Made by a program: the position numbers and the translations under genes. The notes beneath the pieces are model-generated. The model ran no database searches. It saw nothing but the letters and a program-made list of their open reading frames with translations, and was not told where the DNA came from. From Globomyces pollinis-pini (taxonomy: Eukaryota; Chytridiomycota; Chytridiomycetes; Rhizophydiales; Globomycetaceae): 64,000 nt of DNA. The DNA is taken from positions 1 through 64,000 of the forward strand of contig MU621161.1 of assembly GCA_025399215.1 (NCBI GenBank), given 5' to 3'. Shown piece after piece: positions 982-64,000 of the stretch. Numbering within the stretch: position 1 is the stretch's first letter; every line of letters begins with the position of its first letter.

Positions 982-2148
982 TTACTCATTAGCCCCCATT
1001 TCAAACAAGTAATTGGCGGCCAATTCTTCATTTCTATCACACGCTAGGAAAGCTTCAACAGCTAAATCTCTGGCAAACCCTAATTCAGTCAGCTATATAT
1101 TAGAAAGTATCATCACATACTCTGTTGACAGCAGCTTCTTCTTCAGCGGTAATAGTAACAGTAATATACTCTCCTCCAGGTGCACCACCTTCACTTCCTT
1201 CAGCCAACATTTGTAAAAATTGATCTTGGTTGTTGGAAATCAGCTATAATATAAAAACCCAATTGAATCATTACTTGTACTAAATTTGGATTTGTCTGCC
1301 CTAATTGTGCCAATAATGGTTGTAATAATTCAGGATTAGTCTGAACCATTTGGCGTAACTGTTGGAATTGAGGGGATGTTCGCAAGAATTCCAGACTGTT
1401 TGGGGTTGTGCCGGTCGCTGCAGGAGGAGCAGTATCTGATTGTGCTTGTGCTGCGGCTTGTTGGAACAAATTAACATAACCACCTGCAGAAGTAGGGGTT
1501 GGTGCAGCAGGGGTTGCAGGTGATGGGGCAGCTGCAGGAGTTGGGGCTGGAGCAGCTTCTACTCTGGCAGATTCTGGGATACCCTAATATATTTAATTCC
1601 ACAATAGAATGTTACAGTCATCAAGTATTCGACTGCACGATCCGGATTGTTAAAAGCTGCTCTCATAGCGGCCACACATTGGTCTCTTGGGAATCCCATT
1701 TCCACTAAATTTGCAATAGTTGATTCCAATGAAGATCCTGTTAACAAAGTTGATTCCGAAAATGTGGTCTCTGCTGGAACTGTGGTTGGGGCTGCAGCAG
1801 GAGTAGGGGTTGCTGGCACAACTGGGGCTACTGGTGCCGCAACTGGAGCTGGAGCGACTGGAGTAGGAGCAGGTTTTGGCTAAAATAAACGATCGATTCC
1901 CAAACCTTGGTAACCATAACAACTACAAAGTCCTTGTCAGTAACACCAATGTCTCCGACAGTTACATCATCTGTTAAAATCTTTCCTTTAATTATTAGTG
2001 AAATATTGGTACCTTTGAAGATCAATTTTTGAGATTCTGCATTCAAGTCTTGTACTTCTTGGATTGATTTCTTTAGGTTTCCAACAGTAACGGATGGTTC
2101 CACATCGATTTGGAATGATCTACATTTAGCTATTGATAAATTGTTCAT
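982..2148 (-). CDS. RAD23: RAD23 proteasome shuttle/DNA-repair factor
   Basis: Reconstructed domain order is ubiquitin-like domain ([18 protein letters not shown]... GKILTDD... DKDFVVVMV), a Pro/Ala/Thr linker, UBA1 ([20 protein letters not shown]), an XPC-binding region ([19 protein letters not shown]... [10 protein letters not shown]) and a terminal UBA2 ([18 protein letters not shown]... LFEMGANE). In the family, the UBL docks on the proteasome, the UBA domains bind ubiquitin chains, and the XPC site supports nucleotide excision repair. At least five GT..AG introns must be removed, including 26 nt at 1880-1905 and 28 nt at 1093-1120; the protein aligns without gaps across them. It lies 99 bp downstream of MON1 on the same strand. 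Confidence 0.93.
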
Positions 2149-2247
2149 ACTTTTGTTGCAATGTTTTGAAGTTGACGATCATTTTGGAAAAAAAATAAAA
2201 CAGACAAGGGGGTTACTTAAGAATTTATTAAGGAAATGTAAAGCTGA

Positions 2248-3730
2248 TTATAATAAGAAATTATCTTGTCTATGTTGGATCCATTCACCTAGTTCCCACA
2301 TCGCCAAATGAGCTACTTCTTTTTTAATTAACGGACTGAAGGCTGCATAGATTTCAAATAGTGTCGATTTCTAATTAGTTAATACTTCTCTTCATTACAT
2401 AAAGAACAACTGTTTCACTATCAGTTATATGAAAGGACATATTCCCAAAATATGGCTTGCCTAGTCTGGATTGTGCAATTTGATACATTAAATATAATCT
2501 AGTACATTACTATCATATACTGTTGATACCTATTTTGATCGGCTGGCATGGTATAAGGGGGGATGGGATTCGTTTCTGTGATGCATTTTACGCCTCTATA
2601 TTTGAATATGACATGTCGTAGTCCAGGTATACCAAGCTCCACTGTATATAAATGATGAATAATTACCAACATTTATCGGATCTGTTTTGATCAGATCCTC
2701 AATTGGCTCCACACATCGAAGATCTTCTAATTGCTGTACAAAATCTCTTTTAAACTGACTTAAGATAAAGAACGCATTTTTATCTACTGATAACAAGACC
2801 AAACATAAATCTGGAGTGATAAAACATGAATAGCAATGAAGGTACCCAGAGCTATTGAATTCTGCTAAACATACTGGGCTCCAAGATTCCACAGCTCGAA
2901 AACTGCTTGAAGAATAAATTAAATTGATTATTAGAGCAATATCTATACGTTTAAAAAAAATCAAGAATTGTGATTCAAGATGCAATAGGATGAAATAAAA
3001 CTAAAAGCTACCTTTAAAGCCAAGTGAATGCTTTTTAGGTTGAACTAGTGTGACCAATTTTTTGTTTGCAATAAGCATCCCGAACGAAAGTGTCTTTGGT
3101 GGTTTTGCCAGATTCCAGGCTTTTGAAATTGATTTCTTTACTTTAGTAGAGATAAGCATTGTTCTGACTGATTCCAAAAACAACCATGGTTGATCAAACG
3201 ACTTTATCAGCGAATTTAATAAAACATCTGTCCCTATTTGATAAGCTTGGCAGTCTAGATTTTACCCATTAGTAAATTCCTCAAATCGAAGTTTATGTGC
3301 TGATCAAATATTTGATTCAATTGAGGTATTGGTACAGAGAATATCACCTGGGCGTATAGTAACTCCAATTGTTTTGTTAATACACGTTCTGATTCATCCA
3401 AACTTGACACTGCTACCAAATATAAAGGTCCTTGAATGTAGAAAACGAATTTATGTTCACCAGCCTATTCCAAAATAAATATATCCACCAATTACTTTAA
3501 AAGACAGGAGAGGATCATTTTCCTCAATAAAAAACGACAAGTAAGCTTGAATTACACCCATAATTGAAGCTAATTTTAGTTCATCACCATGGAAAGAATA
3601 TATCGGCTTTCCACTGGACGATAAGATGAAGAAATGTTTTTCTTGTTGTTTCCATTTAACTGACAAGTGATCTGAGAAGCATCAGATTAAATTCCAAGTT
3701 ACCGTCCTGGCTAGTGTTTGAATCGTTCAT
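2248..3730 (-). CDS. MON1: MON1 vacuolar/late-endosome fusion factor
   Basis: The conserved longin-type blocks of Mon1 are present: KHFFILSSSGKPIYSFHGDE near the N-terminus, then AGEHKFVFYIQGPLYLVAVS, a Leu-rich block ending LYAQ, and INLIYSSSSFRAVESWSPVC followed by NSSGYLHCYSCFITPDLCLV. In the family, Mon1 pairs with Ccz1 as the GEF for Rab7/Ypt7. I chose the ATG at 3730 because it joins through a 31-nt intron to the conserved KHFF block; a longer start at 3841 would overlap the divergent DNPH1 gene. The C-terminal end (…ELGEWIQHRQDNFLL) is less certain. Several introns of about 30 nt are needed. Confidence 0.88.
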
Positions 3731-3796: not shown

Positions 3797-4302
3797 ATGA
3801 AAGATATCTATTTTTGTGGATCCATTCGAGGAGGAAACCAAGATGCCGAGCTATACAAAGATTTAATCAAGTATCTAATTGAATGGTCAACTTATAAACA
3901 GGCACTTAAACACTCATGGAAAAGTACTAACAGAACATGTTGGTGGTAATGGTAAACATTTAATCATAGACAATCAGAAGACTATGCAACAAAACTGGAC
4001 TGATCGTCAAATATGGGATCAAGATATGGCCTGGTTGAGGAAATCTTCAGTTGTGGTGGCGGAATGCACGGTTTGATTTGCAAGGATTCTCAATTGAATG
4101 GTAGGTGACCAGTTTGGGAGTTGGCTATGAGTTGGGAATCGCAGAGGAACTGAAGCTCCCGATCTTGTGTTTATTCAGAGGAAGTAGTGATAAGCTTTCA
4201 GCAATGATTACCGGGAATCCTCACATTATGGTAGGATATTACAAAGAATTGCCGGATGCAAAAGTCATAATTGATCAGTTCATGCATAAGTTACAGCAAT
4301 AA
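3797..4302 (+). CDS. DNPH1: 2'-deoxynucleoside 5'-phosphate N-hydrolase (DNPH1/RCL)
   Basis: The protein starts MKDIYFCGSIRGGNQDAELY, matching the Rcl N-terminus with its phosphate-binding GSIRGG loop. It continues IKHLNTHGKVLTEHVG, DQDMAWLRKSSVVVAECT and TSLGVGYELG, where the Glu of YELG is the family catalytic Glu. It ends with LCLFRGSS...LSAMITGN. Family members hydrolyse deoxynucleoside monophosphates, including modified ones, to base and deoxyribose 5-phosphate. Three small introns were resolved, of 31, 24 and 34 nt; removing them gives an uninterrupted match to the animal enzyme. The family is patchy in fungi. Confidence 0.9.
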
Positions 4303-5410: not shown

Positions 5411-7829
5411 CTACTCAATACTGGAATCGTTCGTATGACATTTATGACAATGTTTCCACCACACACCATCCAATTGGCCACTTTCATGGGTACGAATATC
5501 ATCCAATACTTGTGTATTGACATTGATACCAAATGGGACTAAAACTTGATTTAAACTGTTTCTTGCCACTATCACTTTCAAGGGATTGGAAGAAAGGACT
5601 TCACTGGGTGCAGATTGACCAGAAACTACCGAAGTCAAACTATTGATTGCTGTCTGATAATTAGCAAATCCAAATGAAAATCGTTTCTTGAGTTTTGATA
5701 AAGGAATCCATTCACAACATACATGGCATTTACTATTTGTTTTAGTATTTCTCAAAATTACCCTTCTGTCATGATATGGATCGTAATATTTCTTTCTTCA
5801 GATCTGGACTGAACCTGATCTTCATACCACACCGTTCTAATATCTACAGGATTTTGAAAGTATGCACCAGTCACACTTGATACACCATGAGTGTATTGTT
5901 TATGATACCAATAGGCTAATGATGAAATAAATTTTCACGAAATGTACATACCAGAATTTTTTAATTGTAACCAACGAGTCGGTTTACACAATTCACATAA
6001 TCCTTCCTTTCGAAAACCAGTAAATCGGACCCATTTAGGGGTATAATTATCCAGATCATGTTTGAGTTTTTGTTGTCGTGGTTCAATTGATTCAGCACTA
6101 TCAATTTGAAGGGAATTTGATCTAGCTCTGCTCTTCTTTCGAGTGTCGGGTTTCTTTTCAGCAGCTTGCGGGACATCATTCTCTTCAATGCTCACCAAAA
6201 CACTCGATTTCGTATCTTTTTTACAGAAATCTGAATTGTGATCCTTCATCGCCATATCATTAACTGAATATGATCGAATACGAGGTGCATTCACTTTGGG
6301 AGGGATGCAAGATTGGTATACATCGGCAGATATCATGAATGGGGATTGGGTATCTAAACTCCTGGAGCATTTAGGATATTCGATCTTGGATTCAACTTTA
6401 TCTTTCGTATTATAGCTTTTGTTTACGGTTTGCAACGGTGGTGACTTTTTGCTGACTTCATCTTTATCACCACAAAATACACGATTAGTTTCTCTACCAA
6501 ATCCTAACCATGTTTTTAACTTTCTAGCTTCTTCATTGCGTTTGCTCATCCTGCTTTTAAGTTCAAGCAAGGGACATGGACCGTTACTTGACTTTGCTTG
6601 TGTATCATTTTGTTTTACATCTAATGATGTAAATTTATCATTCGATTTAAGGTTATTATTTTGAAGGTTAGCCTCTGGACGATTTAAAGCATCTCCAAAT
6701 GACTGCAAGCTGGCAAATCCATTTACAATGGTATTAGCAACTTTATGACTAGTATTTACATCTTGAGTATAATCGGTATTTGGTTTGATATTAAAAATGG
6801 AAAGATTGTCCAAATTTTCATTCGATACCAAGCTTATATCTTGATGCAATTGGAAACTAGATGATTGGTTTGGTATAGTTGATGGATTCATTAATTTGTC
6901 GGTCAATTGCAAATCGGAAGTATTCAACAAACTAGGATCATTGAGGTTTGCAGTTGTATCAAAGATAAAATCAACTTCATTCTTGACAAAATCATTTGGA
7001 CTGGAATCAAGAGATTGATTATTCAAATTCATTTCAGGGGTATAATTTGAAAACATATCAGGGTAGGAATCAAAAGACATTTGAGACTGATTAAATAAAT
7101 TGTGGATATTCATATCAACTAATAGGTCAATGAAATCAATGACTTACCAATATTATTTCCATTTGATGAATTTTGATCATTATTGTTTGGTAAAATGCCT
7201 GTAAAAGACGAACAATTATTGAAATCCGAGAATGAATTGGGTTGATGTGAAAGGGGTAGGGATTGGAAGGATAGAGGTTGTGAATAATAGGAAAAACAAT
7301 TTGAATCATCAGATAGCTGGGTATCAATCCCAGTTTTACACCTCTTTTGATTTAACACTGTCTGAATACTTGAATTTAAATCCAACTTTCTTTTATATTC
7401 AGGATGGGTTGGACTAAAACCAAGTTCATGAGAGTTTAACATATCTAGGTTCATGATTGAATTAGAGTCAGATCCAAAATGAGTTTGATTTTGATTGGGA
7501 AAGTAGTCTTGATGAGAAATGTTTAAATTGTCAGGTATGGTCACCATTTGATCAAGAGTCATCGATTGGCCGTCCACAATTTCGGGTAAGTCGGGTGGGC
7601 ACCATTTGGTTGATTCCGAGTTGTGCAGTTGACCACGAATAGAGTCCCAGTGTGAAGCAGAGTTAATATCAATTGGATTGGAGCCAGGGTGGATAGAGTT
7701 GGAAGGTCTAAATGCTTCCAATGAAATTGTTTGAGTTGGGGAATCCGTCACCGATCCATCGGAGTGGATATAAAGCGGGAAGTCAAAGGGGATCTCAAAC
7801 AGAGCTAGATTCTCACGATGCAGAGTCAT
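5411..7829 (-). CDS. Rua1-type zinc-domain transcriptional regulator
   Basis: A long, Asn/Ser-rich N-terminus (MTLHRENLALFEIPFDFP onward) is followed by the Rua1 C-terminal domain: GLCELCKPTRWLQLKNS, AYWYHKQYTHGVSS, CHVCCEWIPLSKL and finally VWWKHCHKCH, giving the paired C-x2-C plus H/C ligands. The domain is known from fungal regulators such as Rua1 of Ustilago, which controls glycolipid biosynthesis. Introns of 29 nt (after GNNI), 36 nt (after LKNS) and 23 nt (5792-5814, after VWYEDQ) join the exons. The target genes cannot be predicted. This is one of the strongest fungal markers in the window. Confidence 0.85.
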
Positions 7830-10434: not shown

Positions 10435-11717
10435 TGGATGATGAATTAACACTTGAACCAACATTGCAAAACATCTTGGACCAAGAATCATTACGTTGGA
10501 TATTCTGTGGTGGAAAAGGAGGTAGATGTGAGTCACTAACAAACAGGTGTTGGGAAAACCACTACGAGTTGTTCATTAGCAACCCAATTAGCCAAAGTTC
10601 GAGAATCAGTTTTACTAGTAATGCATAACTGAATTCATACGTTTAGATCAGTACTGACCCAGCGCACAATTTATCAGGTATCAAGGTTATTTACCTAATT
10701 GATATAATAGATGCATTTGGTCAAAAGTTTGGAAAGAATCCTCAATTGGTGAAAGGATACACTAATTTATATGCAATGGAAATCGATCCTACGAGTAGCA
10801 TGCAAGAAATGATTGAATCATGTATTGGATTCGTTACTGTTCATATATAGCATCTAATCCTGGATTAAAGAGCCAAATCGAAGATATTGCCTTTGCTATT
10901 CCTGGTGTAGATGAGGCCATGAGTTTTGCAGAAGTGATGAAGTAATCGTTTTTTGGTTTTTATATCCAGACTGGTCAAATCAATGGATTATTCGTGCATT
11001 GTATTTGATACAGCCCCAACAGGGCATACATTAAGATTTCTGTCGTTCCCTGGTATTCTTGATAAGGCTTTGGGGAAATTCTCTCAGATGGGTAGTCAAT
11101 TGGGACCAATGATGAAACAAGTTTGTTATTCTTTACTCATGGTAGTTTGGACCAATGATGGGTGTGGAAAGTGATCAAGAAGACATATTTGCCAAATTGG
11201 AAGGCATGCGTACAACTATTCAAGAAGTGAATTCTCAATTTCAAAATCCTGTAAATGGATTTTTTTGACTCAACTTGTATATAGGATAAAACCACTTTCG
11301 TCTGTGTTATGATTGCTGAATTTTTATCATTGTACGAGACGGAACGAATGATTCAAGAACTAACAAATTATCATATTGATACTCATAACATTGTGGTCAA
11401 TCAACTTTTGTACCCTAAACAAGGTAAAGATAACAACTTTCATACGTTTTATATCGTATTCATTTGACTTGGGATCTTATAATTGCTCACAACATATATT
11501 TAATGTTTTTAGGTTCTAATTGTGAACAATGTCTAGTTCGAGCCAAAATGCAAGCAAAGTACCTTGAACAAGTGGATGAACTATATGAAGACTTCCGTAA
11601 GGTTATACTTAATTCATGCTAGATGTGGTTAAAATGCCATTATTGACTGGGGAAATTCGAGGGGTAGAAACGATTAAAAACTTTTCTGAAATGCTAATTA
11701 AACCATACCAACCTTGA
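10435..11717 (+). CDS. GET3: GET3/ArsA-type tail-anchored protein targeting ATPase
   Basis: The N-terminus [20 protein letters not shown] leads to the deviant P-loop [14 protein letters not shown], which is split by a 25-nt intron. There follow [17 protein letters not shown], the membrane-facing helical region, [16 protein letters not shown], and NVVNQL-type block ([12 protein letters not shown]) then SNCEQC, the zinc-binding CxxC that holds the Get3 dimer. It ends [20 protein letters not shown]. Get3 captures tail-anchored membrane proteins and delivers them to the ER. Most introns are 25-34 nt, but the one at 11424-11512 is 89 nt. Confidence 0.93.
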
Positions 11718-20373: not shown

Positions 20374-21685
20374 ATGAACGACGACCCCAAAGTACGTTAT
20401 TGCTTCGTTGCTGAATGGTAACCTAAAATTTCAACAATAACGTCAGGTTTGATGTTCATGCCCAGCTGTATCGCAACTACGAATTCTTCTTCTATCCCTC
20501 AGATTGTACTATTGAAATGGTACTCTGTTTATATTTTAATACATGGAATTAGTATGATACAAAGCAACGAAGAACATTCTTGAAACGATCGAAATCCGAC
20601 TTGAAATTACATGATTTGTTTCTTGGAGCTGCCATTAATGTTCATGCTCGTCAACTATTAATTAGAGACTTTGCAGACGACTTCACACGATCAGCATTAT
20701 CAACAACAATGGAAAGGTACTGGATCAAATCTAAATAAGCAGTACTTTACTAATCATCAAACCTTCTGGTTTAAAATTTTTGGGATCTATATTGAATGGG
20801 TTGGCCCAAAACCAATTCACCCTTTGTCGATTACGAATGATGAATATCACAGCTAATCTTGCAAAATCATTAAATGATGTGGACCAGTCATTCAACGGTG
20901 GAAAATCTATTGTTATGGAACTATTAAAACCTGATGTAATCACAAACCTACACAATGTACTGAAAGGTATCCAAACTAGTTTAATTGTAGATTCATTTTC
21001 AAAATGGACTCGAAATTCAAAATTGAATGATTTAATCTACACACCAGAGAATTTAAATGAAGCTCAAACTGTAAATCACTCTTTACTTATTTTAGAAATT
21101 ACAATGGATCTTTGAGAATCAAATTGATTTTAAACGTACTGCAAAGTTCCAGAACTGCACGCTTTGTATTATTCGACCACATGCCATTATCTCTGGTATA
21201 TAATATACAGTTTGACCTATAGGAATTCATGGAAACATCATCCAAAGTATAATTGATCACGGAGGATTCGAACTATCTGATTTGGAATTACTACATCTAG
21301 ACAACACAAATGCAGAAGAGTTCCTAGAAGTATACAAAGGGGTTGTACCAGAGTATCAAGTAAAAGAATTCATAGACATTAATATTAGATGATGTTGAGT
21401 CAATTAACAACAGGACCGTTGATAGCAATGTAAAAATCAACTTTATTAAGATTAGTGAATTGATTGGTGATGAAGACATAGTTTCCAAATTCCGTGATTT
21501 TGTTGGTCCAAGTGATCCATCTTTAGCAGCACGTATTCGACCAAAGAGTTTACGTGCACTTTATGGTCAAGATAAAGTGAAAAATGCTGTTCATTGTACA
21601 GATCTACCAGAAGATGGTCCACTTGAGGTATTTATATGCTATTATTATAACTATATAGAGTGAATACTTTTTTAAAATTTTATAA
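20374..21685 (+). CDS. NME7: NME7, axonemal DM10/nucleoside-diphosphate-kinase protein
   Basis: MNDDPKVRYCFVAEW begins a DM10 domain (RNYEFFFYPSDCTIEM, RRTFLKRSKSDLKLHDLFLG, NVHARQLLIRDFADDFT). The first NDK domain (TLLIIKPSGLKFLGSILNGL) lacks the catalytic His: the expected NAAHGPDS position reads NDLIYTPEN. The second NDK domain (CTLCIIRPHAI, VYKGVVPEYQ, QLTTGPLIAI, RALYGQDKVKNAVHCTDLPE) keeps it. It ends SEYFFKIL like the human protein. NME7 lies inside axonemal microtubules and is part of the gamma-tubulin ring complex in animals. Many 25-31 nt introns interrupt it; the splice reconstruction is supported by conserved motifs. Confidence 0.93.
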
Positions 21686-21804
21686 ACTATTTTCTTTAAA
21701 CTTATTCAATAAATGAAAGAATTAATTGACTCATTTGTAGTGCATCTGTCCAATTCAAACCAAAATCGAACAAAAAGATTGTAATAGTTTGATATATATT
21801 GAAA

Positions 21805-22554
21805 TCAACTAAACTAAAAAAGATCAATACCATATCGAATGAATCAAATACCTGTAACAAATACTACAAAACCAGATTAAAATAGTTAAACATACCGTTT
21901 CAGCAACAATACGTGCACGAGCATTTAATGATAATTTCATTTCACTGATTTCTTTATCAACTTCTTCCATAAACACCACAATGAAATCAACCAATTTATG
22001 TTTATACATTTGTTCGGTATGGAAATTTGTTACCAAGAAACTAATATCATATCCCTAAATTGATTAATTGAATATGGAAAAGGAAAAAGGTTGGTATTGA
22101 TAGGGAAAGGTTGTTGCTGCTTACAGGGACAGGTTTACGACGTAAAATAACAAAATTCTCGGCTCGCATCATCAAGAATCTAGTGAATTTATGACAAAGT
22201 ATTCGTTCAATATCATCTGATTGTTTAATTCGAATTGAAATTCGTAAGGAATTGATTGATCCTTCAATTAATACTTGTTCATTTTCATTTCTAGAAATAA
22301 TAACTGGAGTCAGTAGAACTTCCTTTGATGATCTATTGGGTTAATTGAGTGTGCTGCTTAATGATAATGTAAGTTGGAGGTTGATGATCAATAAGTGGTT
22401 TTTATACCTTGCTTCAACTTCTGGTTTGTTGTGACGTTCTACGATTTGGGAACCAAAGTTTTCTAAACACATTGCTGCAGTAAGAGTCGATCTGACAGCA
22501 GCCAGGTAAGGTCGTAAAGTATTGGACTGGAATTAGATTCTGCTTTCTTACCAT
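21805..22554 (-). CDS. ARPC4: Arp2/3 complex subunit 4 (p20)
   Basis: The first intron (25 nt, 22527-22551) begins immediately after the ATG. Then come [126 protein letters not shown] and [18 protein letters not shown]. After one more intron the tail is TYLLQ, and a second 3' intron probably gives the stop at 21805. The protein is near-identical to animal ARPC4 in length. It nucleates branched actin, as used in amoeboid zoospores and endocytic patches. Confidence 0.93.
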
Positions 22555-22740: not shown

Positions 22741-23889
22741 TCATTTGACAGCAAGAAGCTTAACTTCAAACACCAAAGTAGCATTCTTTGGAATATCTGG
22801 TGGTGCACCCTTGGATCCATAAGCCAATCCTGATGGAATGGTCAACTTTCGTGTACCTCCAATCTTCATACCAACAATACCCTGATCCCAACCTCTAATA
22901 ACTTCACCCTTTCCGAGTTTGAAACTAAATGGTGATCCCTTAGTGTTGGAGTCAAATGTTTTGCCATTGGTCAATTTTCCAATGTAACGCATGGAGACTT
23001 TTGATCCTTTGGTGGCAGTCTTACCGGTACCGACAACAACATCTTCTACGATGAGTCCACCAGCAAGTTCTTTCACATTAGATTCCTTCTTTGGTTCATC
23101 TTTTTTCACTTCCTTCTTTGGTTGTTTTTTTGGTGGTTCTTCAATTTCGACAATCTTTGCCTTCTTACTCTTGGCTTCCTTGTCGGCAATAGCTTTACGT
23201 TTCTTCAATTCAGCTTCAAGTTGAGCATCAAATTCCATTTCAGCTTCATCATCTGAACCTTCTAAGTCGCAATCAATAATAAAATAATGTACCTTCGTCT
23301 AATAGTTAATGAAAAAAATGATTCATACCATCATCTTCATCATCGTCTTCATCATCATCATCTACAATTTCAGTTGAACAAGAAAATATACCTCCACCGT
23401 CACCTAAACTAGCCATCAAACGTTCCATAGTAGCATCATCCAATTCTTCATCATCTTCTTCATCGTCCTCGTCATCCATATCCTCCATATCGCCACCAGG
23501 AGGAAGCATGGTAACGGTATTACCAGACAAATCAACTGGACATTTTCCAACCACAGAGAAAGTCACTTCATCACCTTCATGCACGTACTATCATATCAAT
23601 AACAAATACCATACCAAATTCAACAATTGGTTTTCAGTCACACCAGGAGTAAGTGAACAGATCGTGAATTTCACATCATTGACCAAAAGAATGACGGAAG
23701 TTCGGTTGGCACCGGAAGGAAGGGTAGCAGCAAGAGATGCCTATCATGAATCAATTCAAAGACATACCTAATGTCAGTCCAAACGGGTTAGTTTACCATT
23801 GTTAAATGAGTATCTTCTTCAAACGTGGTAGTATAAGCTTGTCCAGGTTGGATTGTAAGTCCAAAGAATGAGGTTGGGAAGATCGCCAT
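22741..23889 (-). CDS. FPR3: Nucleolar-type FKBP prolyl isomerase (Fpr3/Fpr4-like)
   Basis: N-terminal nucleoplasmin-like domain starting [20 protein letters not shown] with [20 protein letters not shown]. Then there is an extended Asp/Glu-rich tract, a Lys-rich basic stretch, and a C-terminal FKBP domain with [47 protein letters not shown] and [13 protein letters not shown], ending FEVKLLAVK. This order is that of fungal histone-binding prolyl isomerases Fpr3/4. The start at 23889 is chosen for the family N-terminus. Two structural oddities are described in the findings: two introns that directly abut (23741-23796) and a possible 6-nt exon (23293-23298). Confidence 0.92.
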
Positions 23890-38541: not shown

Positions 38542-38834
38542 TAAATGATATCCATAAAATACGTTGACTTAATTGACTGAAAAGGCAGGATTATTCATAC
38601 ATTTTCTTTGAGATAATTCATACCATCCAATCCATAAAAGTAACTTTTCTGGTGCAATATCTTGCCATCCCCACAAGTTCAACTTTATGGAATTTTTGTC
38701 TCGTTTTTTTTGTCAACGTAGAATGAATAGTCAACCCATCAAGAATAAACATTTGGCTGCAAAGAAAGTAGTGGGATTCCAACCGGCCCTTAGTGAAGTA
38801 ACTTGGTTTTTTTTAATGTCAGTCGCCAGTAGCA

Positions 38835-40676
38835 ATGTTCCAAATGGACGAGGATATGCCAACTCAAGAACCATTTATTGCCCATCCTCAAGCTCATCAT
38901 CTTAAAAAACAATCTTCTACTGAGAATACTCATAAAGATGGATTATCCATTCCAATTCCAGCAAGTCAAAATCCTCAATTTGCAAAAACTACTCGAAGTT
39001 CTTTATCCGCAACCATCGGTTCTCCATCTTCTTCTTACTCGGATCGTCTCCTAGAGCTGGCTAAAGTAGGGGCGAGTGGAGGTTCAAATGATCCACCTAC
39101 GTTTCCCTCTCAAAGACGTATGTCAAAACCAAATATCATAGTTCCACCAGCATCACAGAAACCAAATCCTAAAACTATGACCAAAGCAGAGAGAAGAGAA
39201 CTACAAGAACAACAAAGAGCGGAAAAGGCTGCACGAATTGCCGCAGGACTACCTGCAAAACAGCATCCTCCTAAACAAAAATTGAAAAGTTCAAGTCCTC
39301 CAAAAGTGCACCATGATCACTCCAGTAAACCAAATTCAACTACTATAAAGAAGCAAATGAAAAAAGTGCAAGCTGATAATGCTGGTAAAAATGTCCTTCC
39401 ATTGTTTTCCCATTTGACCCAATTTGACCTTGATTATACTCTCTTGAATGAAAAATACCAAGGTGCTATTCATCCTATCATCATGGAATTGGGAGTTCAA
39501 TACAGGGAGCACTCAATCATTGGTGGTACTGCAAGATGCTTAGCAATGTTACTTGCCTTTCAGAAAGTATTGATTACATAATCTTAACTGTTAGTTAATT
39601 GCAGACTATATTACTCCTCCTGGAGCAACTTTGCAGCGTAATTTAAACACAGTTATCAGTACTCAGATTGGATACCTTACCAACATAAGACCTCTTGCCT
39701 TCAGTAACTCATCCCCCTAATGATTAGGTATGAAAAATGCGATTCGATTTGTCAAGTACTTACTGACTAACTTGGATGTCGAATTGCCAGATGTGGATGT
39801 ATTTTACGTTTATTTCACAGTTTAGGCCAAAAAATATCTGTGTGATGCCATTTCAAATTATATCGAAACTAGAATAACATTGTCCCATAGTGCTATTGTA
39901 GAGCAATTACTGGTACATGCAAAAAAAATCAAAAATGGCGATTGTGTTATGACATTTGCAAGGTAACATGTTGACTTTGTAATAATATTGAAGGTCATCT
40001 ATTGTGCAGCGGATTTTGATTGAGGCTCACAATCGTGGTATTGACTTTGAAGTCATAGTTGTAGACTCTCGACCGAAACTGGAAGGTTGAGACCATTTTT
40101 GCTGATTGTTTTAGGGAAGGAAACTCTTTCTGAATTATCTCAAAAGGGTTTAAAATGTACTTATATTTTATCAAACGCTATACCATACGTTATTAAGCAA
40201 GTAACAAAAGTGATGCTTGGTGCCGGAGCAGTACTTTCCAATGGAGATGTGCTTTCTCGATGCGGTACTTCATTAGTTTGTATGGCAGCTCATGATGCTA
40301 AAGTCCCTGTCATGGTTGTTTGTGAAACATACAAGTTTAGTGAAAGTGTTCTGTTAGACTCTATTGTATTTAATGAGATGGGTAAATATGCACTTATTGA
40401 CTTTAGGCAATCCGGATGACTTAACTGACATGGTTCTTCATGCACCTTCAGAGTTACTCCCATCTACTTTCCGTTCAAATCGCACTCCTGGAATATTAAA
40501 TGACTGGGAGAAAAACTCCAATCTAAAGCTGGTGAACCTTTTATATGACATTACTCCTGCAAAGTTTATTACAATGTTGGTTTGTGAAATCGGTCAAATC
40601 CCGACCACTTTAGCACTTCGCGTAGCAAGGTAATTTTGAACTATTCATTTTTAGAAATCAAAATGAGACACATTAG
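38835..40676 (+). CDS. EIF2B4: eIF2B delta subunit (GCD2)
   Basis: A Lys/Ser-rich N-terminal extension (MDEDMPTQEPFIAHPQAHHL onward, with KAERRELQEQQRAEKAARIA) precedes the conserved eIF2B alpha/beta/delta fold: VLPLFSHLTQFDLDYTLLNE, KYQGAIHPIIMELGVQYREH, GGTARCLAMLLAFQK, then LQRNLNTVISTQIGYLTNIR and RILIEAHNRGIDFEVIVVDS RP. The core contains CTYILSNAIPYVIKQVTKVM, LGAGAVLSNGDVLSRCGTSL and PVMVVCETYKFSE. It is the regulatory delta subunit of the eIF2 nucleotide exchange factor. A last small intron (40630-40654) would give the ending RVARNQNETH; otherwise it stops at 40633. Confidence 0.9.
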
Positions 40677-41161: not shown

Positions 41162-41275
41162 ATTGATGTACAATTGTCTTCTACTTTATTGTAATCATTC
41201 GATTTCTAGTATTTGAATCTTCAACAGCAGCTTGAAAGGAAGAAAGTTTGTAAAGTTTTTTTACTGTTAAACTCA

Positions 41276-41883: not shown

Positions 41884-41979
41884 TTAACTAATAAAATGTA
41901 TGGTTAAAGTATATGGATTCAAGTGTTTATAGTCTTGGTTTTTTCTTTATTCAACCAACGCGATTGATACTTTTGAAAA

Positions 41980-43473
41980 ATGGTTAAATTAAAAAGACTG
42001 TTATTAAGATACTATCCACCTGGAGTCATCATTGAATATGAAATGGAAGGTCATTTCAAATCACGTCATATCGATTTGTTAGATTTAGATGAAAAGTAAC
42101 ACTTTAATTAAACTCAACGATATGATTAGAACTGATTTAAAAGTTGTTGCAGAGAATATTATTAGTATGGATAATATTATACCAAAGACAAAGTTACCAA
42201 AATTGATGGAATTTTTGACAAGTACGTAGTTAAACTATAACTATTAGAATTGCAATCGAAATTGATACAGAAAGGAAAATATAATCTATATAAAACGTTA
42301 AAAACACATGTAATGCCATTAACAAACTGTGTATTTGATAAATCTGGAGGAAGGTATTACAAGTCAACATGAACAGTAGATTTGCAACTGGGAGTTATGA
42401 TAGACAAGCGAAAATATGGGATACAAACACTGGGAAAGAACTTTTAGCGTTAGAAGGTCATCAAAATGTAGTCTATTCATTGGCATTTAACAATCCATTC
42501 AGGTTTTGAACAGACATCACTAACAATTAGTGATAAACTGGTAACTGGATCATTTGATAAAACTGCAAAAGTACATGCGATCTATTATTAACGAATTATT
42601 AGCTGTGGGATGCAGAGAATGGTAAATGCTTGAACACATTCGTTGGACATACTGCAGAAGTAGTATGTACGAATTTTAATCCTCAAAGCAACAACTTGAT
42701 CACAGCTGGTATGGATACAACTGCCATGTTATGGGATATTCGAATGGGCTGTGAAATTAAGAAGTTAAAATCTCATTCCTCTGAAGTTATATGCGCCAAT
42801 TTTTCAATGGATGGAAGTCATATTCTAACTGGATCATTCGATTCAACCGTAAACATTTGGGATACAAGAAATCAGACGTAATTTCAATTATTTATTTGAT
42901 GGGTTTAGGTTGTTGCACAAACTCATTGGTCATCGAGCTGAAATATCTAATGCTCAATTTAATTACCAGGGAACGAGAGTGCTTAGTGGATCAATGGATG
43001 GTGCTTGTAAGGTCTGGGATATACAAACTGGTGCCTGTTTAAGCACGATCATGTATTATTATATCTAGTTAACTTCTAAGCGGTCATACTGATGCGGTAC
43101 TGGATGTATGTTACAGCTTGAATGGAAAAAAATTTGCCTCCGCTTCTGCAGATGGAACAGCATTGATTGTGGATGGAAAGACGTTTGAGACTCTTCATAT
43201 TTTGAAAGGTCACCAAGATGAAATATCACGAGTAAATCTGACCTTGTTAATTGCTTATTATAGGTTGTTTTCAACTCCCAAGGCTCTCTGCTTATGACGG
43301 CCAGTCAAGATAAAACATGTCGCATCTGGGACACTGCTACTGGGGAATGTGTACAAGTTTTAAATGGTCATACTGACGAAGTGTTCAGTTGTTCGTTTAA
43401 TTATGATGGAGATTCCATCGTGACCAGTTCCAAAGATAATTCAATAAATATATGGAAATTAGAAAATCAATAA
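41980..43473 (+). CDS. DAW1: DAW1/ODA16, outer-dynein assembly WD40 protein
   Basis: Starts [20 protein letters not shown], an almost diagnostic N-terminus for DAW1 (WDR69), followed by a seven-to-eight-blade WD40 propeller: [12 protein letters not shown] ([20 protein letters not shown] region), [73 protein letters not shown] and [15 protein letters not shown] at the end. ODA16 is a cargo adaptor for intraflagellar transport of outer-arm dynein. Introns interrupt nearly every blade. It confirms motile flagella. Confidence 0.92.
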
Positions 43474-43505
43474 AATGTTTTAATTACAAACAATATTTTA
43501 TCAGT

Positions 43506-44566: not shown

Positions 44567-44718
44567 CTATTTGTATTGTGAAAAGCTCTTCGCGATTACT
44601 TCAACATTGTACTAACCGAACAAACAAAACTCAAAAACTGAAATTCTTTAGAATGAGTAATTGCTATTTTAAATGAATGAAATAGATAAAAAAATTGGAG
44701 TAGAATAAATTAACGACT

Positions 44719-46806: not shown

Positions 46807-47449
46807 TTGTTATAAAAGTACAAAAAAGTAAAAGGAGAACCAAATGTTTACAGGTATGGATGTTTTTCTAGTAGTGATGGAACTCTTTGTTGAAATCGTG
46901 GAGTCTAAACAATGGCTACAAATGAACCCAAATCTGTTCACAAAAGAGTACACTTGATCATTAGTCATGCGCTATATGATCCCTCTATTGATTTTTCTAT
47001 CAGATGAATTGGTTGTACTGTGTCCAGTGGGATCCATCGCGTAAAAATATACCAGTTTTAAAAGAGTTAAATTTCTCTCACATGTCAATGAAAAGTCTGT
47101 CATTGATATATATGATATGGATAATGATTGAGAGTGTGCTAGTATGCTAGTATGCATTGCTCAGCTATTTTTGTTGAACATACTACATCGGGGTACTAGG
47201 CAGCGAACTTGATTCGATTGATTGGATCTCATGAGATAGTGCTGTTAAATTGAAATTATAATATCATTTTATTCAAATATCTGATGACCGATCCCACGAA
47301 ACCAAGTTAACTGCAACGTTATATCAACATGGATATAACTACTGCACTATTAGAACATGCCACTATCGACAATAATGATCGATCATACGTGATAGAGAAT
47401 TATTTCCCTTGCCTATTGGTCTGGTGTTTTGATTGTTTTTTTACCCTCA
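46807..47449. other. Divergent spacer CCDC81/DBF4
   Basis: This 640-bp segment has a small tandem repeat GCTAGTAT (about 47138-47155) and an upstream ORF beginning at 47329 (MDITTALLEHATIDNNDRSY), which could be a 5' exon or uORF of DBF4. Nothing else is supported. Confidence 0.4.
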
Positions 47450-50147: not shown

Positions 50148-52818
<2,671 letters not shown>

Positions 52819-54937: not shown

Positions 54938-57898
54938 TCACATATAATACATTGTGTTTTCAATGCCTGACAAGACTGGAGAAAATCCAATTCTCTTGAC
55001 ATCTCCCTTTCCTTCACTAACAGAATCATCTAGATCAACAAACATCCTAGAAACTACGCGGTTAGTCCAAAATATATCATACAATACGCAGCCAAATGTG
55101 CTCGATAAGCGGGGGCTACCATTGAAATTGTCCTGGTCGCTCGGCCAGCCAATAAACACAAGTTATAACACAATTGCTGACATTCATCACTGGTCATCTT
55201 GATGGAATCATAAAGGACATGATAAATAGTTGGTCGAGACATTCCTTGAATTCCAGCGTGTGATTGCAAGATAAAGTTGAACTGTGTTGGATGTGTTATC
55301 TGTGTATCAATAACTGTGCCTGGAAGACAATTGCCGGATCGATCTGCATTTTGATCAGTGGGAAACAACCGAATATGATGTCGTTTCTGTACCACTATAA
55401 AGGTTAGTTTGCATTTCCATTTTGCTTTTTCAATGGCTTTTAGAACTGCACCCACTTCCAATCGAATAACTTGCTCAAATTGGCCACTAGAGACTCCATC
55501 CCGGAAGAAAATGATCTGGTCTGCCGTGTTTCCATTGACCATTCGATAGTCCTTGAACGCCCTCTCAACAATAGCTTCCAATCCGTCAATTATTTCCATT
55601 CGGGTCAATTGTGCATTAACGTACGTGTTATATATTGTCGCATCAGCATCAGTACTAGCTACGACTGCCGCAATAGAAGGTGCAGCTGATCCAGGTGCTG
55701 GATGAGTGACGTCAGCTCCCATATACATGGTTGGTTTGTTGGATAGTGGTAATCGATCAACAAAGTTGGTTGTGCCTCCTATCTTAATGTTTGCTTTCAT
55801 TGCCACATTAACGATATACTGGTCTTTGATTTGATTAGCCCTTATGACATGTTTTGACTGCATACATTGGGTTATCACACCAGCATGCAACAATGAAGTT
55901 CTTTTAATATTTTCATAGACACTCTTCGGTTCTTTATCAATTATACAAACAATTAACTGACATCGTTGTTTAGTTTCCGATTGGCATTCCAAAAACATTG
56001 TTTTTAAAGCACCACTCACATTACCTACTTCGCTAGGATTGGCGACTATTACTGGGCACTTGTAGTTTTGGATATTCATTCCAGCATCAGCCCATTTTCT
56101 GAGAATCACATCTCGGATAGTGTTTGCTTCAATACTAGTAACTCGTACAAAAAATATGAATCCAAAGCTTTTCAATGCTGGAGAATTTACCAACTATCAG
56201 TCAACAATACTGAAAATCACCTTTAAACCTCTTAAATTCCATGATCCATCTGATCCCGCTACCAATTAAACACGACAATTAATAACTTACATGCAGATCT
56301 TTGGTTCTTAAAAACCACTTTTGGTGCTGCCAATACCCTTGCCTTGACATCCATCATCTCCTTACTCACTTTCAACCCAAACGAATTCATGTACGGGTTC
56401 TCTGCATACCTCAAATTCCTAACTGCATTCAAAATTTGTGTTTTTCGTTCCTTTGGTTTCTGGATTGTTGCTCTAATCATATCTGAAGTTTGATTGCCAT
56501 CAAGTTTATCGCGAAATCGTTGTGCGGGTACAATTTTTAAAAATTCAATTGGGAAAGCCGTTTTTCCGTTCGCCTATGGATTAGCATACCAAAAATCTTT
56601 TACTTTCATTGCTAATGGCATATTGGGATACCTTAGTTTCAATCTGTATTCGGTTTGGAAATATTCTCTAATAATTTAAGTTGATGCTGCTAGTCTTACG
56701 CGACACTGATTTTTCTTTGATTTTTATCCTCGAATTTTAAAGTGTTGGCCGTAAATGCTCCAATTTTTGCTATTTTAAATCTTTGCTTTTGATCTCCTCG
56801 ATGTGTTGTCACCACGTTTACTCCTTTCAAGAGTTTAGAGAGTGTGTTGGTTGAATATCTTGATATGTCTTCTGGTACTCTACCACCAAGTGATTCCAAT
56901 ATGTAGTCAATTACTGATATGTTTCCTTTTCGGAACACTGTTGATGCAATATCAATATTGATCCCCAAATGCCCAGCCATCATTGCTTTAACAGATTGAT
57001 GATACCTGTGATTTAATTCTTTTTGAATTACCCTCTCCAAACCTCTAGCCCTCCAGACACGGAACTGCGACCTTCTGGTGTAAAGAAATTAGATCCCACT
57101 ATGAATTAGCTATCGTTTTTAACCTGGAGTAAAAAGCATTGAAGGGATGTGTCTTAAAACAACAGATAGAGCGGTAGTAGCATGTAGAATGTTGTCAGTC
57201 TCCTCCATTCTGCCTCTTGAATAGACTAAAAGCTCATGTAGATTGATAGTGGCTGATTTACGCATGTTGAAAGTAACGGTTTGAAATGGGCCTAGACATG
57301 TTTTTTCCGTCAATATCGTTACAGGAGTTAAATTTAAGGAAAAGCCGCCGGAAGAAGATTCTCTATCACCAGATCGCCCTTTACCTATGTCCCTATATCT
57401 ATCACCACCTCTGTCTCGTTCTCTATCTCTGTCTCGTTCTCTATCTCTGTCTCGTTCTCTATCTCTGTCTCGTTCCCTTTCTCTTTCTCGTTCCCTGTAT
57501 CTGTCACCACCTCTATTTCGGTCTCTACCTCTACCACCTCGATCTCCATAACTTCTTCCACTATGACCTTGACTTCCTGTTGGTTGCATTGATGGGATAG
57601 CCACATCAACGTTGTTTTCAACATATATTTTATGGGTTTGATCTTCCAAATCGGTGGTGGAGAAAGCAATCTTCAACCCATCAAATACAAACCAGGCATG
57701 TCTGTTTGTCTTTTGAATGATTGCCTCTGCTTGCCTGAATACTCTTCGAGCCTTATCCGCCGAAAGTTCTGGATTCATAATCACGTCATACTGGTAAACG
57801 TTTACGTCACTCAAGTCCGTGACGGGAAATATGTTTGCTTGTACAGTCACCAACCTTCCAGATTTCCCTCCATTATCTGGCCGTTTTGGTAAACTCAT
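54938..57898 (-). CDS. AGO: Argonaute, RNA-interference slicer
   Basis: N-terminus MSLPKRPDNGGKSGRLVTVQ with the N-domain (DVIMNPELSADKARRVFRQA). An Arg/Glu/Asp-rich repeat then occurs at about residues 130-170, after which come LNLTPVTILTEK, the linker and PAZ (RRSQFRVWRARGLERVIQK, EYFQTEYRLKLRYPNMPLAM), the MID, and PIWI with GADVTHPAPGSA (first catalytic Asp), IIFFRDGVSSGQFEQV (second Asp) and MVAPAYRAHLAAY (His). The DEDH set therefore looks intact. After a 29-nt intron the C-terminus is SRMFVDLDDSVSEGKGDVKR to NTMYYM. Slicer activity and RNAi are expected. Confidence 0.94.
57411..57496 (+). repeat. 18-bp tandem repeat inside Argonaute N-domain
   Basis: About 4.5 copies of the unit TCTGTCTCGTTCTCTATC, degenerating rightwards. 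On the coding strand it gives alternating Arg-Glu/Arg-Asp dipeptides (RERERD, RDRERD repeated). This is a coding minisatellite, so its copy number may vary between strains. Confidence 0.85.
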
Positions 57899-59536: not shown

Positions 59537-61001
59537 TTAAAAGTTCAACTTGAGCATTCCTTCACTACTCGTACCAGCAATCACCAAAGCGGATTGTAGG
59601 TTTTGATCACCAGTTGCTTCAACTTCAGATACAGGTCTCCAACCCGATTCTTCTCCTGCAAGCAAAGTTCCCATAGAACCAACATTAGGAACGGGCAAAG
59701 TGTTGATAAAATCGATAAAGTTATTAATCTTTTCTTGTCCTTCTAAAATCTTTTTAATCTGTGATTTGGTGTATCCCCATTTAAGTAAGTGACTGACTTT
59801 CAATGGGTTTGGATGACGCAAACCATTCAAACTATCACGATCACCATTGTCTGGGGTAGTCATGTTATAAAGTTCAATAATTGCATCTGGCAACTTTTTG
59901 ATTTCTTGAACAGTGAAAGTAGGAACTTCTTCTACCGCATCACGCTTTGCCAACAGAGATAACTTGCGTTCATAAAGAGCACGCTTGGATAATACCCCAG
60001 ATGGTGATTGAGGTGCCACGGAGTTTGAATACGTATGGCACAAACTCAAAAGTTCGTTCTTTTGTGTATTCATCATTTCTGCAATTGTAAATCTTCTACT
60101 ATCAATCACACCAAATGAATATTGAGTGGTTGTGGATCCATAATATGCAACTAAATTGCCACTTGATTTTTGTTGCCATTGCCACCAGATTCGATCCACA
60201 TTTGCGTGATGCATAAAGAAAATTGGATCATTTACGGACTGGGAAGGATCGGCCATGTCACCTACAATTTAAAACGAATATCTTACCACCAATAGCTTGA
60301 TGAACAACATTGTGTGCATATGATTCGAGATTGACTCTAAAATTTCGATAACCCACACTGTTTAAAATGTATTGAATAGTTGCTGGAGAGTAGTACGATC
60401 CCAATGGTGTACCACCATCAGAATATTTAGACCAAGCGCGTTTAACACAATGTGGTTGTGGAAAGATTGCCGTGATATCTTGTAGTTTACTAGACTTGAT
60501 ACCTGCGGAGATACAACCTGTTGAGACTTTGCCATTACCACCAAACCAGTCCCAGATAGGAGACAAGTCTGGAGCTTGTGAGTCTACTGACCAATCCCAG
60601 TATCTATTTGTACATTAAAACATTTTAATTACGGAAATGGGTCGACATATTGACAGGTATCTCTCAAAGTACGTTCGTAAAGACCCAAGAAAGCTCTATG
60701 CCAAGGTAAAAACAGATCCTGTAGGATAAAAATCACTTCAACATACCGTGTTATGAATTCTAGACGACATACTGTAGTGTAGACGAACAAAATCATTCCA
60801 ACGATTATCGTTTCCGTCTGATGGATACTGGAGAGAAGGAGTGCTTCTTAAGCACAAGATAGCATCCAAAAACCTGTTTTTGGCGGCATCAGACATTTCC
60901 CGCCATTCAATCCTTCTTGAGATACTACTACACGGTTTGGAGACTGCCGTAACTGTGTTCAAAAGCAATAAGAAATTTATCAAAAGTCCTAAACCAAACA
61001 T
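59537..61001 (-). CDS. Secreted tyrosinase-like copper oxidase
   Basis: Signal peptide MFGLGLLINFLLLLNTVTAV. CuA region: LHYSMSSRIHNT and, after a 26-nt intron, FLPWHRAFLGLYERTL. CuB region: YAHNVVHQAIGG and DPIFFMHHANVDRIWWQWQQ. These are the tyrosinase/hemocyanin copper-binding His sets. The C-terminal domain has two dibasic KR sites, in VLSKRALYERKLSLLAKRD, at a place where tyrosinases are often trimmed for activation. It probably oxidises phenols for melanin or cyst-wall crosslinking; chytrids often carry many copies. A kexin gene that could process it lies 43 kb away. Confidence 0.88.
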
Positions 61002-62288: not shown

Positions 62289-62417
62289 AAAATAAACAAT
62301 TTCTGATCTTTAGAATCTTTTTGTTTGAATTGCAATTCGCTTTCCTATAAATTTGTTTCTTGTTTTTTGTTAGCTTTTTAAAGTGTGAGCGGTTTTGTCG
62401 TTTTTTCATCTTTTAGA

Positions 62418-64000
62418 ATGGAAACTGCTCTGGACGCTTGGGCCAAAATGTACTCAATCTGATCTTCTCACCATCATAGATTACCTGTAGTAGATTTTAT
62501 TCTAGGTACGGTATTCAAAAGTCTTCTTGTTTGATCCTCTTCAATTCATTCCTTTTTATCTCTTCATTTGCATTAACCATCTCTTGATAATCATATCTAT
62601 CTTTATCTGGTCTAGATCAATCGCAATTTTAATTTATCATTAGGTAATTATTTTTTTTGGATTTATTCCTTTCTTTAGGTAACTCATGCTCTTCTCTGTC
62701 GCCTGCTGAGTATATGACTTGCTATACGTATTTTCACTTTAACATCTCATATTAGTCATATCATGACCTATTGTTCCGCAAACAAACCGACATCAACCTC
62801 AGGATCATCTGATGTTAAGGGCTCCCATATTTCTGGTGGTGAATTATACCATTTACTCAAAAAACATGTTGCATCTCATTTGACAAACTTGGCAACTCAA
62901 AGCACTGGTTTGGCTGATGACTCACTACTCTTTTACTATTCTCGACAGTGGGCATCATTTACAACCTCCGCAAAAGTCTTGCATAATTTGTTTCAATATT
63001 TAAACAGAATGTGGATTAAAAGAGTCTTGGAAGAATCTGGGCCAGGTGTCTCTGATATTAATACTGTACTTTCACCACAATCTGTTAATCCTTAGACTTG
63101 CTTAATTTTATGGAGAGATCATTTCTTTAAACCATTACATGATCGATTATTACCTTCAAAATTGAAATTAATTCTAAGAGAGCGTCATGGAGAAACGATC
63201 GACAAAAGTTTATTATCAAAGATAATCGAAAGTTGTGGTACTTGTATTTTTGACTCAAAATCGCAGTGACACTTGGAATTAACGATCTCGATTCTAAAGT
63301 ATCCACCTTGGATGTCTATAAAAAATACTTTGAAGAATCTTTCATTACGGCCACAGAGACTTTCTATCAGGCCGAAAGTGAAACATTCATTGGGGCTAAT
63401 CCAATTACAGAGTATATGAAAAAGGTATGTGATTTTGTATTTCTGTAGACTTAAACAGTATTTTTTCATATCCTTAGTTTCGCAATATCTAATAATGTCT
63501 TTCAATGTTTTGTCTATTTATTTCCAAATCGAACAGCACACTTTTAAATCTCATTCATTACTAATTTGGTAGGCAGAAACATGGTTGGCTGAGGAAGAAG
63601 ATAGAGTTAAATCGTACTTGCATCCTTCAACCAGGGACCTTCTAGTTTCAACCGCAGAGAGAGTTCTTCTTACAAGCCATGCATCTTTAATCCAAGATCA
63701 GTTCCAAACCTTGATTGAAAGAGATAAAATTGAGGATTTAACCAGAATGTTTGGTTTGCTATCCAGAGTTCCAGATACTTTAGGACGGTTGCGGGAACTT
63801 TTTGAGGCTCATGTTAAGAAAGAAGGTCTAGTCGCTGTCCAAAAGGTTGCCGAAGGAGTCAATGAAGCTGAAGCCTCTGGTGCTGCCACCCCTGTTGGTG
63901 ATGACGATACCAAACCTGTCAAGAAATCTAGTTCTGATATTGACCCAAAAGTTTATACCGACGCTTTATTGGCTGTTCATTCCAAGTTTGCCGACGTTAC
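62418..64000 (+). CDS. CUL1: Cullin-1-like E3 ligase scaffold, 3' truncated by window
   Basis: The first clear block is LSPAEYMTCYTHIMTYCSAN (cullin YMxLYTxVYxYC), then GELYHLLKKHVASHLTNLAT, LLFYYSRQWASFTTSAKVLH, YLNRMWIKRVLEE, ILWRDHFFKPLHDRLLPSKL, RERHGETIDKSLLSKIIES, VYKKYFEESFITATETFYQA and NPITEYMKKAETWLAEEEDR. The match is to CUL1/Cdc53, scaffold of SCF ubiquitin ligases. Introns include a 31-nt one (after KIIES) and a 148-nt one (63425-63572). The 5' end (from 62418, METALDAWAKMYS) is a guess, since long gaps between exons there are unresolved. The gene runs off the right edge. Confidence 0.87.

What the first reader, a model, noticed from the sequence alone, without database searches (positions are those of the whole stretch)
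1093..63572. Ultra-short spliceosomal introns (about 23-35 nt) throughout
Seen in sequence: conserved proteins (RAD23, DNPH1, ETFRF1, GET3, NME7, UXT, PPIL1, CUL1 and others) are continuous only when GT..AG segments of about 23-35 nt are removed. Examples are 1880-1905 (26 nt), 1093-1120 (28 nt) and 5792-5814 (23 nt), each with a CTAAC/CTAAT/CTGAT-like branch motif just before the 3' end. Known: most fungal introns are about 50-100 nt, while 15-30 nt introns are known mainly from Stentor, nucleomorphs and microsporidia. If general, this organism has among the shortest spliceosomal introns in fungi, and ordinary gene finders will fragment its genes.
Basis: partly seen in the sequence, partly recalled or inferred. 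Interest (0 to 1): 0.75.

Follow-up and report, generated by a model that had tools for sequence, protein, structure and literature searches.

The report
Fungus with tiny 28-nucleotide introns
Genes of this chytrid fungus are interrupted by many introns only about 28 letters long, far shorter than is usual in fungi, and some of these introns sit back to back with no exon between them.

Summary
The window lies in Globomyces pollinis-pini (Chytridiomycota, Rhizophydiales): contig C72 is 68,594 nt, the contig length listed for that species' deposited NSF and GET3. A gene model trained only on 264 kb of this genome, with a flat intron-length prior, finds a sharp GT..AG peak at 23-36 nt, mode 28-29. 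The same procedure with five other dinucleotide pairs gives none (14-26 introns of 25-34 nt, against 262). In NSF, GET3 and eIF2B-delta, 30 of 32 predicted intron positions agree with the deposited proteins; homologues side with my model in the other two. Signals are U2-type. 'Gene finders will fragment genes' is only partly right. Two extras: introns divisible by three and lacking stops are about threefold depleted in one of two models, and some 53-90 nt introns are AG|GT concatemers of the small units, homology-backed in NSF, SMU1, UPF1 and NTF2. No RNA data were available.

The parts
1093..1120 (-).
   Evidence: exactly predicted; splice score 8.5
1244..1274 (-). 31-nt intron, same gene
1584..1615 (-). 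32-nt intron, same gene
1880..1905 (-).
   Evidence: exactly predicted; splice score 9.6
1986..2012 (-). 27-nt intron, same gene
3797..4302 (+). DNPH1-like gene; introns 3871-3901 (31), 3946-3969 (24), 4071-4104 (34)
   Evidence: Pfam PF05014
5733..5761 (-).
   Evidence: score 7.2 vs 2.5; Pfam 44.8 vs 40.1 bits
10434..11717 (+). GET3 gene, 9 introns: 25, 29, 33, 29, 28, 25, 34, 89, 26 nt
   Evidence: PF02374 over residues 21-316
10678..10710 (+). 33-nt, 3n, stop-free GET3 intron that the deposited annotation retains as 11 residues
   Evidence: insertion absent from the six homologues of other species in the alignment
20517..21812 (+). NME7-like gene, 8 predicted introns of which 7 are 24-33 nt
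   Evidence: PF00334, and PF25364 below its cut-off
23741..23796 (-). double intron with zero-length exon: two GT..AG units, 29 + 27 nt
   Evidence: no homology check made
38723..40676 (+). eIF2B-delta gene, 8 introns of 24-31 nt
   Evidence: all 8 agree with deposited G. pollinis-pini protein P0241
41276..41883 (+). PPIL1-like cyclophilin gene, 5 introns: 41307-41334, 41410-41435, 41474-41501, 41636-41660, 41755-41784
   Evidence: gap-free over 154 residues to chain 3jb9_d, ppi1
41980..43473 (+). WD40-repeat gene (DAW1-like by eye), 8 introns of 26-34 nt
   Evidence: WD40 repeats
50148..52818 (-). NSF/SEC18 gene, 15 intron positions, 14 of them 25-34 nt
   Evidence: spliced protein identical over 733 aa to JEL0801 protein P0001
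51902..51967 (-). 66-nt double intron of NSF: 35 + 31 nt units joined AG|GT with no exon

Best explanation
The segments are ordinary U2-type (major spliceosome) introns reduced to near their functional minimum, 23-36 nt with mode 28-29, in an intron-rich chytrid (3.7 introns per kb of coding sequence in my models). Each carries a GTANNN-like 5' site, a YTNAY-like branch site whose best match lies mostly 17-21 nt after the 5' site and 6-12 nt before the intron end, and a YAG 3' site. Shown: the sequence signals, the length peak, protein continuity across junctions, the canonical branch-binding U2 snRNA, and genes for SF1, a U2AF65-like protein, SMU1 and UPF1. Inferred: excision by intron definition, with SMU1 (and RED, not found here) relieving the strain of a short 5'-site-to-branch distance, and nonsense-mediated decay culling unspliced transcripts, which would explain the shortage of stop-free introns divisible by three. 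Inferred origin: ancestral introns kept at chytrid-like density while shrinking to the recognition limit.
For: Peak specific to GT..AG against five control pairs; flat-prior peak in the window and in the other stretches alike; held-out loci 81 of 127 in 25-34 nt. Protein continuity: NSF 15 introns, 733/733 aa identical to a deposited protein; eIF2B-delta 8 of 8; PPIL1 5 introns, gap-free over 154 aa; GET3. Branch geometry: 383 of 627 introns have the best branch match 17-21 nt from the 5' site, 500 of 627 have 6-12 nt after it. U2 snRNA 135.4 bits with GUAGUA; SF1-HH; U2AF65-like exons; SMU1 E 8e-127; UPF1. Learned-prior model: 3n introns 154 with and 30 without a read-through stop, other lengths 287 and 160, P 6e-7, with no surplus of 3n intron-like segments left inside exons (5 vs 8 and 3).
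Against: No RNA evidence. U1 and U6 snRNA and the RED protein were not found; those searches rang in no control genome either and cannot show absence. The U2AF65 model also rang in 2 of 14 bacterial controls, so its matches are RNA-binding-domain level. Longer introns exist (89 nt in GET3; 60 and 79 nt predicted in L031), and 185 of 593 flat-prior introns are 60-400 nt. In the flat-prior model the 3n split is 88 with and 4 without stops, but there exons do hold a surplus of 3n segments (14 vs 9 and 5), so part of that shortage is missed calls. Branch positions are best motif matches, not mapped.
Confidence: 0.95

Rival explanations
1. The segments are not introns but assembly indels or frameshifts that happen to start with GT and end with AG.
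For: Short length; reading frames do break at these places.
Against: Peak for GT..AG and not for five control pairs; shared branch motif and geometry; two Globomyces records give the same NSF protein apart from 3 residues; hundreds of cases in all 21 stretches.
Confidence: 0.01
2. Ultra-short introns exist but the typical intron of this genome is longer; the sampled stretches are compact regions.
For: Some introns of 53-90 nt occur, singly or as concatemers. In two of 21 stretches, L021 and L024, fewer than 40 per cent of flat-prior introns are 25-34 nt (9/25 and 4/17).
Against: Window 97 of 171, 20 other contigs 248 of 422 in 25-34 nt with a flat prior; 636 of 717 are 20-40 nt with a learned prior, median 29; held-out loci agree. 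The sample is 264 kb of 18.5 Mb, from the larger contigs.
Confidence: 0.03
3. The 53-90 nt AG|GT concatemers are single longer introns, and the inner AG|GT is only a relic of intron duplication or insertion, not a used splice junction.
For: The L024 triple has members more alike than random introns (P 0.002 and 0.022) and all twelve neighbouring pairs combined give P 0.035, though the other ten pairs are singly unremarkable (P 0.08-0.94). Most long introns do not divide at all: 38 of 45 and 58 of 64, so the fungus can apparently remove longer introns whole, if those predictions are right.
Against: Each unit keeps a 5' site, a branch-like match and a 3' site (scores), with lengths of 25-37 nt except one of 42; an unused relic would be expected to lose them.
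Confidence: 0.5

Closest known systems
Ultra-short introns of Paramecium and other ciliates (PMC5014332, abstract and passages)
   Same: Length around 25 bp; 3n introns under-represented and enriched in in-frame stops, explained there by nonsense-mediated decay
   Different: A fungus; my models give 5.0 introns per complete gene against 1.6-2.3 cited there for Paramecium and Oxytricha; serial AG|GT units
15-16 nt introns of Stentor (PMC9505925, part 1 of one section and passages)
   Same: GT..AG, A+T-rich, canonical GUAGUA in U2
   Different: There nearly fixed in length with the branch A mostly at position 10 and 18 per cent of genes with introns; here 23-36 nt, branch match mostly 17-21 nt in, 86 of 108 complete models with introns
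16-17 nt introns of mikrocytids and 18-21 nt introns of the chlorarachniophyte nucleomorph (PMC10245619, section read)
   Same: Narrow length range near the spliceosome's lower limit
   Different: Those are reduced parasite or endosymbiont genomes; this is an 18.5 Mb fungal genome
Very short introns of Malassezia yeasts (PMC7426719, one passage)
   Same: Fungus with very short introns in a compact genome
   Different: The passage gives no lengths; M. sympodialis is among the intron-poor species of PMC8476143 (passages), whereas this genome is intron-rich
Zero-nucleotide recursive splice sites and stwintrons (PMC5126111 passages; stwintron abstracts in the listing)
   Same: AG|GT junction with no exon between consecutive introns; stwintrons in fungi are excised in consecutive reactions
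   Different: Here the units are about 28 nt each and side by side; recursive sites are described there for long introns, and [D1,2] stwintrons are nested inside a donor

Membership tests
U2-type spliceosomal introns | GT..AG ends | tested here: met
   peak appears with GT..AG only among six dinucleotide pairs
U2-type spliceosomal introns | branch site YTNAY close to the 3' site | tested here: met
   TTAAT, TTGAT, TTTAT, CTAAT, TTAAC commonest best matches; 500 of 627 with 6-12 nt after the A
U2-type spliceosomal introns | U2 snRNA with GUAGUA | tested here: met
   135.4 bits, model positions 1-192 of 192
U2-type spliceosomal introns | U1 and U6 snRNA present | tested here: inconclusive
   no match, but nothing rang in the controls either; U4 and U5 not searched
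U2-type spliceosomal introns | branch-binding protein SF1 | tested here: met
   SF1-HH, two matches over cut-off on C262
U2-type spliceosomal introns | U2AF65 | tested here: inconclusive
   four matches on C16 covering profile 191-508, best E 2.3e-26, none over the whole-protein cut-off; 2 of 14 bacterial controls also rang
U2-type spliceosomal introns | excised from RNA | not testable with these tools
   no RNA-seq reachable; protein continuity only
Ultra-short intron genomes (Paramecium-like) | typical length under about 35 nt throughout the genome | tested here: met
   in 264 kb from 21 contigs plus 58.9 kb of further loci, not the whole genome
Ultra-short intron genomes (Paramecium-like) | shortage of stop-free introns of length 3n | tested here: met
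   learned-prior model 30 found against about 86 expected; flat-prior model partly confounded by missed calls
Recursive splicing at zero-length exons | AG|GT between two complete introns | tested here: met
   6 of 64 flat-prior long introns vs 0.8 expected; homology-backed in NSF, SMU1, UPF1, NTF2
Recursive splicing at zero-length exons | stepwise removal | not testable with these tools
   needs RNA intermediates
[quoted passage not shown]
   in the cases listed the units lie side by side with the outer donor intact; nested cases were not searched for
U12-type (minor) introns | U12/U6atac snRNAs and minor-type sites | not tested
   not searched

The most novel reading that the evidence does not exclude
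In this fungus the spliceosome works on a nearly fixed intron unit of about 28 nt, and a share of the longer introns are not longer units but strings of two or three complete units joined AG|GT, removed one after the other, each step recreating the next 5' splice site: recursive splicing in miniature in an intron-rich fungal genome.
Probability: 0.4. Interest if true: 0.75.

Novelty: new member of a known kind. Interest (0 to 1): 0.6.

Why it matters
Human spliceosomes in vitro need about 50 nt between 5' site and branch (PMC6692369, section read); here the best branch match lies mostly 17-21 nt from the 5' site, in most genes of a fungus. That would make an intron-rich opisthokont model for the lower size limit of splicing, for whether SMU1-RED is what permits it, and for recursive removal of tiny units. 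For annotation it warns that stop-free introns divisible by three can be kept in proteins, as in deposited GET3.

Tried and rejected
A simple motif count (GTRNG + branch + YAG) on the window gave only a weak excess at 24-29 and 33-35 nt, and a first flank-scoring scan with a poor coding model gave small numbers; both were replaced by a self-trained gene model. Self-splicing and tRNA-type introns were rejected on length and signals from general knowledge, not by a call. RED was sought with two Pfam models and not found; this shows nothing, as no control rang. SSU rRNA for species identity did not complete; identity rests on contig length and protein identity instead. Duplication as the general origin of double introns was not clearly supported: the L024 triple has similar members, the other ten neighbouring pairs singly do not, all twelve combined P 0.035. 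Intron lengths in relatives could not be measured, since I reached no other eukaryotic genome DNA. The held-out double-intron test (3 of 14, expected 0.44, P 0.005) used a unit range of 22-42 nt, widened after I had seen NTF2; with 22-38 nt only UPF1 of the three would count, so I lean and on homology. In one search three of the seven cases (g15, L020, L025) had been split by the learned-prior model itself, a selection effect; one search uses the flat prior and has no such case, but one of its six (L024 8087-8161) can also be read as two introns around an 8-nt exon. SMU1's double intron came from a model with a learned length prior and is not in the flat-prior list.
Full report
What was checked. 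I built a gene model in Python and C that learns a coding model from long open frames of this genome (window plus 20 stretches of 10 kb from 20 contigs, 264 kb) and allows introns of 15-400 nt with a flat length prior, so that no length is favoured.

Is it more than chance? With bare GT..AG and no motif the model placed 23 of 52 introns in 25-34 nt; five control pairs (TG..GA, GA..TG, CT..AC, GT..GA, TG..AG) placed 5/45, 7/36, 4/37, 5/44 and 3/47. After five identical training rounds, seeded with all introns of any length, GT..AG gave 262 of 505 and the controls 20/424, 21/412, 14/329, 26/424 and 23/410. Adding a branch model, seeded from the 29 first-pass introns of 20-40 nt (the HMM length prior staying flat), gave 345 of 593 in 25-34 nt, with counts 6, 16, 30, 43, 32, 65, 60, 30, 31, 31, 9, 14, 6, 5 for 23 to 36 nt. 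In all, 378 are 23-36 nt, 22 are 37-59, 8 are under 23 and 185 are scattered over 60-400 nt; the last I read mostly as the model bridging genes, without having checked each. The window gives 97 of 171 and the other stretches 248 of 422 in 25-34 nt. With a learned length prior, 636 of 717 introns are 20-40 nt. In 58.9 kb not used for training, 81 of 127 are 25-34 nt; eight of those 19 loci were chosen by an intron-like pattern, which biases them a little.

Who is it? The spliced NSF protein from the window (15 intron positions) is identical over all 733 residues to the NSF record of Globomyces sp. JEL0801, and to that of G. pollinis-pini apart from 3 extra residues there. So the window is Globomyces pollinis-pini, order Rhizophydiales, 18.5 Mb in 459 contigs.

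Protein proof. Judged by protein sequence against the deposited G. pollinis-pini records, 14 of 15 NSF, 8 of 9 GET3 and 8 of 8 eIF2B-delta intron positions agree. In GET3 the deposit keeps the 33-nt intron 10678-10710 as 11 residues that none of the six other-species homologues in the alignment has. In NSF the deposit has 3 extra residues at the 66-nt intron that neither JEL0801 nor the four other homologues in the alignment have. The deposited JEL0801 eIF2B-delta lacks about 60 residues and reads a further stretch differently. PPIL1, with five introns in a 156-residue protein, aligns without a gap over 154 residues to chain 3jb9_d, ppi1. Six spliced window proteins match Pfam families fitting their names.

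1093-1120 and 1880-1905 are exact. 5792-5814 has splice score 2.5, below the first percentile (5.05) of predicted introns; 5733-5761 (29 nt) scores 7.2, has the same effect on the frame, and raises the Rua1_C Pfam score from 40.1 to 44.8 bits. So the shortest example fails; the lengths fill up from 23-24 nt (6 and 16 introns).

Anatomy. The third base of the donor is A in 85 per cent; branch best matches are YTNAY-like, commonest TTAAT (116 of 627); 383 of 627 lie 17-21 nt after the 5' site and 500 of 627 have 6-12 nt behind them; introns are 73 per cent A+T. The U2 snRNA on C213 is full length with the canonical GUAGUA. Of my 108 complete gene models, 86 have introns, 3.67 per kb of coding sequence and 5.0 per gene, close to the chytrid mean of 3.93 per kb (two species) in PMC8476143 (table passage). 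Scaling 593-717 introns per 264 kb to 18.5 Mb gives roughly 40,000-50,000 in the genome; this is an extrapolation that includes false positives.

How it probably works (inference). Intron definition by U1, SF1/U2AF and U2 across one tiny unit. In HeLa extract splicing was abolished at a 46-nt distance between 5' site and branch, and SMU1 and RED are needed when that distance is short (PMC6692369, abstract and one section). Globomyces has a clear SMU1 (C30; 371 residues aligned, E 8e-127); RED was not found, inconclusively. Translation seems to police splicing: in the learned-prior model, among introns divisible by three 154 would give a stop if retained and 30 would not, against 287 and 160 for the other lengths (P 6e-7; P 1e-4 if ten missed ones are added), that is 30 against about 86 expected. 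In that model exons show no surplus of hidden 3n intron-like segments (5 vs 8 and 3 at the stricter threshold, 18 vs 27 and 15 at the looser one). In the flat-prior model the split is 88 and 4, but there exons do hold a surplus of 3n segments (14 vs 9 and 5; 19 vs 13 and 11), so part of that shortage is missed calls. This resembles Paramecium (PMC5014332), and UPF1 is present.

Back-to-back introns. The 66-nt NSF intron reads GT..AG|GT..AG, 35 + 31 nt. Among 64 flat-prior introns of 45-110 nt, 6 divide fully into such units of 22-38 nt at AG|GT and 58 do not; simulations with the same dinucleotide content give 0.8 (maximum 5 in 2000). With the learned prior it is 7 of 45 against 0.44 (maximum 4), including two triples of 86 and 90 nt, three of the seven having been split by the model itself. 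Of eleven other tetramers of the same letters eight give 0 and GTGA gives 2; the two that overlap the motif give 5 and 7. Outside the training stretches, SMU1 (25 + 29), UPF1 (26 + 27) and NTF2 (30 + 42, the second beyond the usual range) show the same, at places where the spliced proteins align without a gap to solved structures. That the whole stretch is absent from the protein is therefore well supported; that it leaves in steps is inference.

Verdict. It is a new, intron-rich fungal member of the ultra-short-intron class, with serial double introns as the most surprising part.

Noticed in passing
L010 (C1:20001-30000), minus strand 8019-9325: A kinase gene with CLK-type relatives whose N-terminal RYDDR repeats include six consecutive 15-nt exons between seven phase-2 introns of 25-30 nt; the exon copies are nearly the same while the introns differ. 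The model's C-terminal end looks wrong.
   Followed up: partly
window 157-600 (+): Intronless open frame near the contig start that looks like an HMG-box protein by eye; not tested.
   Followed up: no
window 54938-57898 (-): Predicted protein resembling Argonaute by eye, with an RD/RE-repeat stretch near the N-terminus; not tested by a search.
   Followed up: no
window 59537-60896 (-): Predicted protein resembling a tyrosinase by eye, 3 introns of 25-29 nt; not tested by a search.
   Followed up: no
deposited proteins P0121, P0002, P0242: Likely annotation errors in public Globomyces records: retained 33-nt intron in GET3, 3 extra residues in NSF, about 60 residues missing in JEL0801 eIF2B-delta.
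   Followed up: yes
L024 (C15:20001-30000), minus strand 1144-1230: Triple intron 29+29+28 nt whose members resemble each other more than random introns (P 0.002 and 0.022), as after a tandem duplication.
   Followed up: partly
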